The translations under genes and the position numbers were made by a program. This document shows, piece after piece, positions 12,701 through 60,307 of a stretch of DNA of 64,000 nucleotides. This DNA comes from Flavobacteriales bacterium (GTDB lineage Bacteria; Bacteroidota; Bacteroidia; Flavobacteriales_D; Crocinitomicaceae). Location: positions 1 through 64,000 of the forward strand of contig JADFAL010000061.1 of assembly GCA_015665275.1 (NCBI GenBank), given 5' to 3'. The first letter of the stretch is position 1; every line of letters begins with the position of its first letter. Below the pieces are notes generated by a model. It was not told the DNA's origin, made no database searches, and saw only the letters and a list, made by a program, of their open reading frames with translations.

Positions 12701-12708
12701 TAACATTG
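12701..12708 (+). promoter_or_regulatory. Candidate -7 box 4 nt before hutI
   Basis: TAACATTG, one mismatch from TAnnTTTG, then CTTC and the ATG. No good -33 box is seen. One of six boxes at this spacing. Confidence 0.35.
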
Positions 12709-30226: not shown

Positions 30227-30802
30227 TTATTGATTTAAGATTGCCCCGCGAACAACGGTTGGCAAATAGGTTTGCTCTAAATATCGAATCTTGCCCTCTA
30301 ACGATTCCACTGTATCGTCCGGTGTTAGTTTGCAATGGAATTGTGCAATGATTTCGCCCTTATCGAACTCTTCGTTCACAAAATGAATCGAAATTCCAGA
30401 TTTCGCCTCTCCATTGGCAATCACCGCTTCGTGCACATTTCTTCCGTGCATTCCTTTCCCTCCATAATTGGGTAAAAGTGAAGGATGTAGATTGATCATT
30501 TTACGATCAAATGCTTGAATTAATTTTGCTGGAATCAAACGAAGGTATCCTGCCAAAACCACCCAATCAACTCGGTGTTCTTTGCAAAGATCTACCAGAA
30601 ATTGTCCATCTGCTACTTGCTGGTTACTGAAATGCAAGGCATCTACCCCCAATTCTTTGGCTGAGGTCAATACTTTCGCTTCCGCTTTGTTACTTAATAC
30701 AAAAGCGATTTCAACCTGATCATCTCCTTGAAAGAAATGAATCAAATTGACTGCGTTACTACCTGTACCTGAGGCGAATATGGCAATTCGTTTCTTTTGC
30801 AT
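30227..30802 (-). CDS. purN: Phosphoribosylglycinamide formyltransferase
   Basis: 191 residues. KKRIAIFASGTGSNAVNLI, the catalytic LHPSLLPNYGGKGMHGRNVHEAVIANG (with the conserved His-Pro-Ser) and SGISIHFVNEEFDKGEIIAQ give the GART formyltransferase fold. It transfers a formyl group from 10-formyl-THF to GAR in purine synthesis. Its promoter (30807-30839) is a perfect Bacteroidota match placed so that the start codon should be at or next to the first transcribed base. Followed closely by marC. Confidence 0.94.
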   Translation of the reverse strand: MQKKRIAIFASGTGSNAVNLIHFFQGDDQVEIAFVLSNKAEAKVLTSAKELGVDALHFSNQQVADGQFLVDLCKEHRVDWVVLAGYLRLIPAKLIQAFDRKMINLHPSLLPNYGGKGMHGRNVHEAVIANGEAKSGISIHFVNEEFDKGEIIAQFHCKLTPDDTVESLEGKIRYLEQTYLPTVVRGAILNQ

Positions 30803-30806
30803 GCCG

Positions 30807-30839
30807 CAAAGGTAATTATTCGATCATTCTGCACCCAAA
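30807..30839 (-). promoter_or_regulatory. Perfect Bacteroidota promoter 4 nt before purN (leaderless candidate)
   Basis: On the minus strand: TTTG (30836-30839), 21-bp spacer, TACCTTTG (30807-30814), CGGC, ATG. Both boxes match TTTG-N19-21-TAnnTTTG. The usual start point 3-6 nt after the -7 box falls on the start codon. Confidence 0.65.
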
Positions 30840-30993
30840 AAATGGAAAAGAATGCGCCAATAGATGTTAAACTTCCGAAAGTGAATAGAAAACATCCAAT
30901 TCTTAGATACAATCAAGTCTCGTGTCTATTATCTAATCGTCAAGCGTCTTTTCTCCAACTAAACCGTTTTAAAGCTGTGACGGGCATTTCCGA

Positions 30994-31025
30994 TTGGGAG
31001 ACTATCTAAAAATGGGGTATTTTTG
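30994..31025 (+). promoter_or_regulatory. Bacteroidota promoter 4 nt before the nuclease/T9SS gene
   Basis: TTG (30994-30996), 21-bp spacer, TATTTTTG (31018-31025), TAGT, then ATG at 31030. Same 4-nt spacing as at purN. Confidence 0.55.
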
Positions 31026-31029
31026 TAGT

Positions 31030-32745
31030 ATGAAATGCTTTCTCTCCATCGCGTTTGTGCTGCTTACATTTGCTTCAATTTCTCAAACAGAAAATGTAAA
31101 AATTGTTGTTTACAACGTTCTCAACTTCCCAGATGGACGAGACGATTGCGGAACAAATACTGTTCTTCCAAATCGGGCGGATACTTTGAGAAAGGTACTG
31201 AGTTATTTGCAACCGGACATCTTTATGGCGTGCGAAATTCAAACCGAAGCGGGAGCTGATAGCATTCTAACGCGTTCATTAAATGTAAATGGCGTTACAA
31301 ATTATCAATCGGCACAGTGGCATGCCAATGGAAACGGAGGGAATCTGAACAATCAGATGTACTACAATTCGGATAAGTTGATCTTTTACAGTCAGGATGT
31401 AATTGCAACGAGTTCTAGAGATATCGATCATTACGTATTGTATCTGAACGATCCGAATCTTACCACCTTCTACGATACCACGTTCATTGACGTTTATATG
31501 AGCCATTTGAAGTCGGGGAATAGCAGCTCTAATGCAAGCATCCGTGCCGCTCAAACACAAGCATTGATGGACTACCTCGCTACGCAACCAACAGATCACA
31601 ATGTCTTTTTTGGTGGTGACTTGAACGTTTATAGTTCCAACGAATCCGGCTATCAGAACCTCATTACGGGCCCATTGGCATTGCAAGATCCGATTAACAC
31701 ACCGGGAAGTTGGAACAACAACAGTTCATATGCGGCCATCCATACGCAATCAACACGAACTAGTTTGAACTTTGACTGCGGAAGTAAGGGAGGAAGCGAT
31801 GATCGGTTCGATCAAATTTTGGTGTCTTCCAATGTCATGCTAGGGAATGATAATGTGCAATACATTTCAAATTCTTACGATGCCGTTGGGAACGATGGAA
31901 ATCATTTCAATACGAACCTTTTGAACGGACCCAACAGCATGTATCCAGATTCTATGGTTAAGGCTTTGTATTATATGTCAGATCACCTTCCGGTAGCATT
32001 GGAAGTATTGGTGACATATCCAACAAGCAATGGATTAGCTCTGTACCCAACGGTACAAGCGCCAACGTGTGCGGGGGCTTCAGACGGTGTGGCAACCATC
32101 AATGCGAATCAGGGACAAGCACCGTACATGTATCAATGGGACGCTGCTGCTGGCAATGCTACAACGGCTACTGTAACCGGATTATCTGGCGGCACTTACT
32201 GTGTTCAGGTGACCGACGATTTAGGTCAAATAGATAACCATTGCGTTTTTGTTCCAGAGCCGCAAACCATGACTTATAGCACTTTTCTAGTGCCGGAAAT
32301 AAATAACTGTGATGGGATCATTTATCTTTCTGTAAGCGGAGGCGTGCAGCCGTATTCCTACCAATGGAACGATCCACAATCTCAAACTACTGCAAATGCG
32401 ATTGATCTTTGTGCAGGGAATTATCAAGTAACAGTGACGGATGCAGCAGGATGTGAGTTGATCGCGGATATTACGGTTCAGACAGTCAGTTTGGAAGAAA
32501 TTTGGATGGAAAATATCAAGGTAGCTCCAAATCCAACGAGTGCAATTTTGAATGTTTCTAGCGAAGAGACATTTACAAGGGTTCAAATTGTAGACCTTTC
32601 CGGAAGATTGGTTCAATTGCAAGATGTATCAAGTTCTGAGTTGAGCCTAAACGTTACCAACCTCAATGCTGGAAGCTATTTCCTTTTGCTAGAAGCTGAG
32701 AATTACCTGGGTCACGCGGCAAGGATTCGTTTTGTGAAACAGTAA
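31030..32745 (+). CDS. Secreted endonuclease/exonuclease/phosphatase-fold protein with SprB-like repeats and T9SS tail
   Basis: 571 residues. Signal peptide, then an EEP domain (about 18-340) with the usual motifs: VVYNVLNFPDG, MACEIQTEAG, GGDLNVYSS and SDHLPVALEV, so the metal-dependent phosphoesterase site is intact. Two SprB-like repeats follow (about 350-490: APTCAGASDGVATINANQG; GGTYCVQVTDDLG) and then a type A T9SS sorting domain (VAPNPTSAILNVSS to the end). It is likely an extracellular nuclease or phosphodiesterase attached to the surface. I start it at the ATG before the signal peptide; the promoter overlaps the upstream open extension. Confidence 0.85.
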   Translation: MKCFLSIAFVLLTFASISQTENVKIVVYNVLNFPDGRDDCGTNTVLPNRADTLRKVLSYLQPDIFMACEIQTEAGADSILTRSLNVNGVTNYQSAQWHANGNGGNLNNQMYYNSDKLIFYSQDVIATSSRDIDHYVLYLNDPNLTTFYDTTFIDVYMSHLKSGNSSSNASIRAAQTQALMDYLATQPTDHNVFFGGDLNVYSSNESGYQNLITGPLALQDPINTPGSWNNNSSYAAIHTQSTRTSLNFDCGSKGGSDDRFDQILVSSNVMLGNDNVQYISNSYDAVGNDGNHFNTNLLNGPNSMYPDSMVKALYYMSDHLPVALEVLVTYPTSNGLALYPTVQAPTCAGASDGVATINANQGQAPYMYQWDAAAGNATTATVTGLSGGTYCVQVTDDLGQIDNHCVFVPEPQTMTYSTFLVPEINNCDGIIYLSVSGGVQPYSYQWNDPQSQTTANAIDLCAGNYQVTVTDAAGCELIADITVQTVSLEEIWMENIKVAPNPTSAILNVSSEETFTRVQIVDLSGRLVQLQDVSSSELSLNVTNLNAGSYFLLLEAENYLGHAARIRFVKQ

Positions 32746-59468: not shown

Positions 59469-59476
59469 CAAAGTTA
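59469..59476 (-). promoter_or_regulatory. -7 box 4 nt before the HAD hydrolase gene
   Basis: TAACTTTG on the minus strand, exact TAnnTTTG, then CCGT, ATG. No clear -33 box. Confidence 0.45.
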
Positions 59477-60299: not shown

Positions 60300-60307
60300 T
60301 ATCTTCG
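60300..60307 (+). promoter_or_regulatory. -7-like box 4 nt before the cyclase-family gene
   Basis: TATCTTCG (one base off TAnnTTTG), GAAA, ATG at 60312. Confidence 0.4.

What the first reader, a model, noticed from the sequence alone, without database searches (positions are those of the whole stretch)
30800..31032. Six genes carry a -7 promoter box ending exactly 4 nt before the start codon: candidate leaderless mRNAs
TAnnTTTG-type boxes lie exactly 4 nt before ATG at purN (TACCTTTG), the nuclease/T9SS gene (TATTTTTG), the YqaA-like gene (TACCTTTG, 40012), the HAD gene (TAACTTTG, 59469), the cyclase-family gene (TATCTTCG, 60300) and hutI (TAACATTG, 12701). For purN and the nuclease gene the -33 box is also at canonical spacing (N21). 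In Bacteroidota transcription starts a few bases after the -7 box, so the first transcribed base would be at or next to the start codon. The constant 4-nt gap is not expected by chance. Other genes in the window have the box 15-90 nt upstream, so two classes may exist.
Basis: partly seen in the sequence, partly recalled or inferred. Interest (0 to 1): 0.72.

Follow-up and report, generated by a model that had tools for sequence, protein, structure and literature searches.

The report
Conserved start-codon promoters predict leaderless mRNAs
In this bacterial lineage some genes, including purN in this window, keep a promoter box about four bases before the start codon across many species, so their messenger RNA most likely begins at the start codon itself, with no leader for the ribosome to bind.

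Summary
All six named boxes lie exactly 4 nt before an ATG; four match TAnnTTTG, two differ by one base. In 1.238 Mb of this genome (921 genes), TAHHTTTG-to-ATG gaps peak sharply at 4 (3:5, 4:15, 5:4), fall to 14 in the eight bins 6-13, and form a broad leadered hump at 14-23 (58 in ten bins); the reversed motif shows no peak. The gap-4 peak recurs in a congener (15 boxes, 322 genes) and, as gaps 4-5, in another family of the order (14 boxes, 275 genes). purN keeps a strict box at gap 4-5 in 30 of 30 loci (own plus 29 congeners) while flanks diverge; bshC (28 of 29) and trmD (24 of 30), taken from outside the window, behave alike. Published Flavobacterium data put the transcription start 4-5 nt after this box, so +1 falls on or beside the A of ATG. 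Leaderless mRNA is the best reading, unproven without 5'-end mapping. The six genes are unequal: purN is strong; hutI and the cyclase gene carry variant boxes at gaps 4-8; the yqaA-like box is confined to three close genomes. Leaderless mRNAs are already known in Bacteroidota as a minority.

The parts
30807..30814 (-). -7 box TACCTTTG of purN, 4 nt before ATG
   Evidence: site; strict box at gap 4 (29) or 5 (1) in 30 of 30 loci, own plus 29 congeners
30227..30802 (-). purN (Formyl_trans_N), predicted leaderless; ATG 30802-30800
   Evidence: Pfam PF00551 E 2.3e-43; next Met is residue 102
30836..30839 (-). -33-like TTTG of purN, N21 from the -7 box
   Evidence: read; not a class-wide feature
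31018..31025 (+). -7 box TATTTTTG of nuclease/T9SS gene, 4 nt before ATG 31030
   Evidence: strict box at gap 3-5 in 8 of 27 loci of this set, which includes distant homologs
31030..32745 (+). Exo_endo_phos nuclease with SprB repeats and T9SS sorting domain
   Evidence: Pfam; start supported by an in-frame TGA between the two ATGs in L212
40012..40019 (+). -7 box TACCTTTG of YqaA-like (VTT domain) gene, 4 nt before ATG 40024
   Evidence: strict at gap 4 in 3 of 27 loci: own and two closest genomes
59469..59476 (-). -7 box TAACTTTG of HAD hydrolase gene, 4 nt before ATG 59464
   Evidence: strict in 2 of 23, one-mismatch box (often TTTCTTTG) at gap 4 in 16 of 23 including those two
60300..60307 (+). 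variant box TATCTTCG of cyclase-family gene, 4 nt before ATG 60312
   Evidence: one-mismatch box at gap 3-8 in 26 of 30 loci, strict at gap 3-5 in 0 of 30
12701..12708 (+). variant box TAACATTG of hutI, 4 nt before ATG 12713
   Evidence: one-mismatch box at gap 3-8 in 22 of 30 loci, strict at gap 3-5 in 0 of 30

Best explanation
These are promoters with the Bacteroidota housekeeping -7 box, placed so that RNA polymerase starts at, or within about one base of, the A of the ATG. The mRNA is then leaderless, and the ribosome must recognise a 5'-terminal AUG instead of the A-rich stretch that precedes start codons in general in this genome. Shown here: the spacing peak, its separation from the leadered spacings, and conservation of the spacing in orthologs. 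Taken from published work: the 4-5 nt distance from -7 box to transcription start in Flavobacterium. Inferred: the actual 5' ends, and initiation on a 5'-terminal AUG.
For: Gene-aware histogram with a sharp peak at 4, few boxes at 6-13, hump at 14-23; reversed and permuted motifs show no peak. All 24 boxes at gap 3-5 lie outside called genes. Replicated in 400 kb each of G015 and G054. Whole-genome gap-4 pattern 101 vs 31 control; 33 of 33 congeners exceed control (2798 vs 859 in sum), gap-9 comparison 1761 vs 1152. Strict box at gap 3-5: purN 30 of 30, bshC 28 of 29, trmD 24 of 30 loci, with flanks diverged. Pyrimidine at -1 in 71 of 86 listed sites. F. johnsoniae: many promoters have 4 or 5 nt between -7 element and start site, G at -5 (PMC6847099 section 14); F. 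psychrophilum box at -12 to -5 (PMC9723704 passages). Next Met of purN is residue 102.
Against: No RNA data. The distance from box to transcription start was not measured in this family, and base bias after 131 leadered boxes was too weak to calibrate it. An additional upstream promoter cannot be excluded. hutI and cyclase orthologs show gaps up to 8, and G054 has 7 boxes at gap 5, which would be leaders of 1-4 nt. bshC has gap 3 in 17 of 28, which needs a start one base earlier. The pyrimidine at -1 fails for the cyclase set (7 of 18) and the yqaA-like set (1 of 5). Up to about a third of raw gap-4 pattern sites may be chance (31 control vs 101), and the gap-9 pattern is also above control in 27 of 33 congeners.
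Confidence: 0.85

Rival explanations
1. The box is a real promoter element but most translated mRNA comes from a second promoter further upstream, so it has a leader.
For: A few purN loci carry a second strict box (37 nt in L263, 21 nt in L273).
Against: Within 60 nt the 30 purN loci have strict boxes at gaps 4 (29), 5 (1) and 37 (1) only, and trmD has none outside gaps 3-5. Promoters beyond 60 nt or with non-consensus boxes were not looked for.
Confidence: 0.07
2. TTTG-N4-ATG is a translation signal (Kozak-like) and not a promoter.
For: It overlaps the translation initiation region; in F. johnsoniae bases upstream of the start tune initiation (PMC6847099, passages).
Against: The general upstream signal here is A-rich around -14 to -9, not TTTG. 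The same box recurs at gaps 14-23, as expected of a promoter. The two variable positions avoid G (86 of 100 listed sites), as reported for F. johnsoniae promoters.
Confidence: 0.03
3. Start codons are misassigned; translation starts at a downstream codon and these mRNAs have short leaders.
For: Starts in the histogram were set by a first-ATG rule; downstream GTG/TTG codons were not examined.
Against: purN, bshC and trmD orthologs mostly align from residue 1 at this ATG; the next purN Met is residue 102. The peak is the same (15 at gap 4) with starts chosen by coding score.
Confidence: 0.03
4. Chance coincidence, at least for some of the six window genes.
For: The yqaA-like strict box is in 3 of 27 and the strict HAD box in 2 of 23 loci. 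The sites were noticed because several fall in one window.
Against: Not tenable for the class nor for purN.
Confidence: 0.02

Closest known systems
Leaderless mRNAs of Bacteroidota found by transcript mapping (F. psychrophilum 5.5% of 890 CDSs; B. thetaiotaomicron ~3.7% of 5' UTRs under 10 nt; F. johnsoniae 87% of leaders over 10 nt)
   Same: Same -7 box, a minority class of very short or absent leaders (PMC9723704 and PMC7366714 passages, PMC6847099 passages and section 14).
   Different: Here the class is seen from DNA as a spacing peak in an inferred Crocinitomicaceae lineage, with gene by gene conservation of the spacing. Gap 3-5 makes up 24 of 177 strict boxes within 130 nt in the own sample, 20 of 79 in G015 and 15 of 49 in G054. 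These shares rest on strict boxes only and are not directly comparable with mapped percentages.
TA-led leaderless genes of Actinobacteria and Deinococcus-Thermus (2011 survey, PMC3160421)
   Same: A promoter element about 12 bp before the start codon marks leaderless genes (passages read).
   Different: That survey looked for a Pribnow-like TANNNT and reported leaderless genes in 1 of 37 Bacteroidetes/Chlorobi genomes, noting possible underestimation there. The box here is TAHHTTTG.
Sigma-ABfr promoters (TTTG / TAnnTTTG)
   Same: The -7 box matches, and G is rare at the two variable positions of the listed gap-4 sites.
   Different: The -33 TTTG is not enriched in the gap 3-5 class; it was also much less evident in F. 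johnsoniae.

Membership tests
Leaderless mRNA | Transcript 5' end at or within a few nt of the start codon | not testable with these tools
   No RNA data; inferred from -7 box position and the published 4-5 nt box-to-start distance
Leaderless mRNA | Promoter core element at a fixed short distance before the start codon | tested here: met
   Peak at gap 4 (4-5 in G054) in samples of three genomes; conserved at gap 3-5 in purN, bshC, trmD
Leaderless mRNA | AUG start codon | tested here: inconclusive
   Patterns and histograms used ATG only; two purN loci outside the family (L245, L259) have the box 4 or 6 nt before a GTG
Sigma-ABfr promoter | -7 box TAHHTTTG | tested here: met
   purN, nuclease, YqaA-like and HAD strict; hutI and cyclase have one mismatch
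Sigma-ABfr promoter | -33 TTTG at N19-22 | tested here: not met
   1 of 24 gap 3-5 promoters and 5 of 140 leadered ones, neither above shuffles; TTG is enriched in the leadered ones (24 of 140, shuffle mean 10) and not in the 24 (3, shuffle mean 1.8). I therefore claim the -7 box only
Sigma-ABfr promoter | Recognition by the primary sigma factor | not tested
   The sigma factor of this genome was not examined

The most novel reading that the evidence does not exclude
In this family leader length is a two-state, gene-specific inherited trait: mRNAs have either essentially no leader or one of about 10 nt or more, and the leaderless state of particular genes is kept across a whole genus (purN, bshC, trmD), for purN and bshC also in other genera of the family, and switches between lineages; RNA-modification enzymes may be favoured.
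Probability: 0.35. Interest if true: 0.65.

Novelty: new member of a known kind. Interest (0 to 1): 0.5.

Why it matters
Bacteroidota lack Shine-Dalgarno sites, and in F. johnsoniae leaderless mRNAs were judged too few to explain how translation starts. A class that can be read from DNA alone, with spacing conserved gene by gene, gives named genes on which initiation from a 5'-terminal AUG can be tested in this phylum. It would also help start-codon annotation: a TAHHTTTG ending 3-5 nt before an ATG is a useful start marker.

Tried and rejected
Calibrating the transcription start from base bias after leadered boxes: too weak. A -33 TTTG as a mark of the class: rejected. A hairpin upstream of the yqaA-like gene in 13 relatives, at first taken for an RNA leader element: the ATG lies 47-83 nt after the stop of a co-directional open frame (473-484 codons in 12 loci, 324 in L108), so the hairpin is most simply that gene's terminator. 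A functional theme, by Pfam only: 4 of 15 gap-4 genes of the own sample are RNA-methyltransferase-type (PF01746, PF00588 twice, PF02390; searches cover the 12 outside the window, another the three inside), and 2 of the 10 G015 gap-4 genes scanned out of 15 are RNA-modification-type (PF01416, PF02590); no background rate was computed, so this is a lead. The 15 gap-4 genes of G015 gave no blastp match at E 1e-10 to the own gap 3-5 set (24 genes), but both are partial samples.

Full report
What was checked. The six sites are as described: in each the box ends exactly 4 nt before an ATG. Four are strict TAnnTTTG; hutI (TAACATTG) and the cyclase gene (TATCTTCG) differ by one base. The closest named relatives by purN are MAGs, most with titles naming Fluviicola, Crocinitomicaceae or Flavobacteriales; that the window's family is Crocinitomicaceae is inferred from those titles.

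Is it more than chance? In the whole genome TANNTTTG-N4-ATG occurs 116 times against 59 for the pattern read backwards, and TAHHTTTG-N4-ATG 101 against 31. The same box with N9 occurs 40 times against 35. In the 33 congeners searched, gap 4 gives 2798 against 859, with 33 of 33 above control; gap 9 gives 1761 against 1152, with 27 of 33 above control; gap 4 exceeds gap 9 in 31 of 33 (numbers). The gap-9 excess shows that part of the raw count is not specific to gap 4.

Gene-aware histogram. I called genes with a simple codon-score caller on the window plus 60 stretches (1.238 Mb, 931 genes) and took the first ATG of each. For the 921 genes usable, 177 strict boxes lie within 130 nt: gaps 3, 4, 5 have 5, 15, 4; gaps 6-13 have 14 in all; gaps 14-23 have 58; gaps 24-33 have 21; the reversed motif has 38 in all and the permuted motif 29, with no peak. 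Choosing the start by coding score also gives 15 at gap 4. All 24 boxes at gap 3-5 lie outside called genes. Against the mean of gaps 6-13 the Poisson probability of 15 or more is 7e-10, and against the mean of gaps 15-22 it is 0.002. The nuclease gene is not among the 15, because the first-ATG rule picks an in-frame ATG at 31012; an in-frame TGA between the two ATGs in L212 argues for 31030.

Replication. The same procedure on 400 kb of G015 (same genus, 322 genes) gives gaps 3:3, 4:15, 5:2, then 5 at gaps 6-13 and 16 at gaps 14-23. On 400 kb of G054 (another family of the order, 275 genes) it gives 3:1, 4:7, 5:7, then 5 and 12. I picked these two for having few contigs, before seeing their histograms, but after seeing that both exceed control in the gap-4 pattern (83 against 23, and 80 against 16).

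Breadth. In 296 genomes of the phylum I summed three groups: 70 same-class genomes 5572 against 3266, 66 of 70 above control; family f28 (65 genomes) 541 against 677, 16 of 65 above control, so no enrichment; family f35 (9 genomes) 215 against 48, 9 of 9. f35 was picked because its rows looked enriched. The remaining roughly 150 genomes were not summed; some families, such as f34, look close to control in the listing. The class is therefore not uniform across the phylum.

Conservation. For each of the six window genes, and for the first two genes of the own gap-4 list outside the window (bshC, trmD), I took up to 30 best loci, own included, among 60 genomes and read 60 nt before the start (strings; table). 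Loci without an ATG near the aligned start, or with less than 60 nt upstream, were dropped, hence the differing n. The purN, cyclase and trmD sets are all from the genus; the others include some loci from other genera of the family or order, and the nuclease set includes distant homologs and one off-target alignment (L239). Strict box at gap 3-5: purN 30 of 30; bshC 28 of 29 (gap 3 in 17, gap 4 in 11); trmD 24 of 30 (30 of 30 with at most one mismatch at gap 3-8); nuclease 8 of 27; yqaA-like 3 of 27; HAD 2 of 23 (17 of 23 with at most one mismatch at gap 3-8); cyclase 0 of 30 (26 of 30 with at most one mismatch, mainly gaps 4-6); hutI 0 of 30 (22 of 30 with at most one mismatch, mainly gaps 4 and 7). 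Shuffles of each upstream string give means of 1.2-2.2 and maxima of 4-7 for the at-most-one-mismatch count at gap 3-8; the yqaA-like set (6 of 27) does not exceed its shuffle maximum of 6.

Where the state changes. Two more congeners and two further genera of the family (G034, G035) have purN at gap 4; the third (G036) has gap 17. Of the other 15 order-level purN loci fetched, 1 has an ATG at gap 4, 8 have gaps 8-23, 2 have GTG starts with the box 4 or 6 nt before, and 4 have no strict box, no ATG or no hit. In the named collection 17 of 17 loci L261-L277 have gap 4, several probably the same genomes as above; of the other 12 (L278-L289) L283 has gap 5, L280, titled Crocinitomicaceae, has gap 8, L278 has gap 30 and the rest have no usable ATG or box. 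For trmD in 20 family- and order-level loci 4 have gap 4, 2 have gap 6, 3 have gaps 16-22 and 11 have no strict box or no ATG; none of the three other genera of the family (G034, G035, G036) has it at gap 4. So the state is stable within the genus, less so across the family, and varies beyond.

Mechanism. Published F. johnsoniae data place the start 4 or 5 nt after the -7 element, with G at -5 (PMC6847099, section 14 read); F. psychrophilum gives -12 to -5 for the box (PMC9723704, passages). With gap 4, +1 is the A of ATG. A pyrimidine precedes the A in 71 of 86 listed TAHHTTTG-N4-ATG sites, against 6 of 14 with G in the variable positions (the listing holds 100 of 116 sites). By gene, among loci with a box of at most one mismatch at gap 3-5, it is 28 of 30 for purN, 29 of 30 for trmD, 21 of 28 for bshC, 17 of 17 for HAD, 12 of 12 for hutI, 8 of 9 for the nuclease gene, but 7 of 18 for the cyclase gene and 1 of 5 for the yqaA-like gene. 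Start codons in general are preceded by an A-rich stretch at about -14 to -9; at gap 4 the box occupies this place.

What is known. Leaderless mRNAs in Bacteroidota are reported as 5.5% of 890 CDSs in F. psychrophilum, about 3.7% of 5' UTRs under 10 nt in B. thetaiotaomicron (PMC7366714, passages), and by implication 13% with leaders of 10 nt or less in F. johnsoniae. A 2011 survey found them in 1 of 37 Bacteroidetes/Chlorobi genomes with a Pribnow-like model and warned of underestimation (PMC3160421, passages). Seven paper searches listed no title on leaderless mRNAs in Crocinitomicaceae or on conserved leaderless purN, trmD or bshC in Bacteroidota; the listings were capped in four of the seven, trmD and bshC were not search terms, and most subscription papers are not held. 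So the phenomenon is known; its gene-level conservation and spacing in this lineage I did not find described in that limited search.

Verdict. purN is a strong candidate; the other five range from moderate to weak.

Noticed in passing
L096, L098, L101, L103-L105, L107-L109, L113, L115-L117 (upstream of the yqaA-like gene): In these 13 relatives a strong terminator-like hairpin with a T-run abuts (within a base) the ATG of the yqaA-like gene, 47-83 nt after the stop of a co-directional frame; how that start codon is reached is unclear (read-through or attenuation).
   Followed up: partly
60300-60307 and L151-L180: The cyclase-family gene often keeps a non-consensus TTCG-ending -7-like box across the genus, which may mean a weakened promoter or another sigma factor.
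   Followed up: partly
12701-12708 and L181-L204: hutI often keeps an ATTG-ending box (TAACATTG or TAAAATTG) instead of TTTG across the genus.
   Followed up: partly
among L125-L146 (HAD gene): In several relatives a terminator-like hairpin and T-tract run straight into TTTCTTTG-N4-ATG, leaving almost no room for a leader.
   Followed up: no
own gap-4 set (15 genes) and G015 gap-4 set (10 of 15 scanned): RNA-modification-type enzymes recur among gap-4 genes (4 of 15 own; 2 of 10 scanned in G015); no background rate was computed.
   Followed up: partly
own-genome sample: Start codons show a strong A preference at -11 (55% A with first-ATG starts) in an A-rich stretch from -14 to -9.
   Followed up: no
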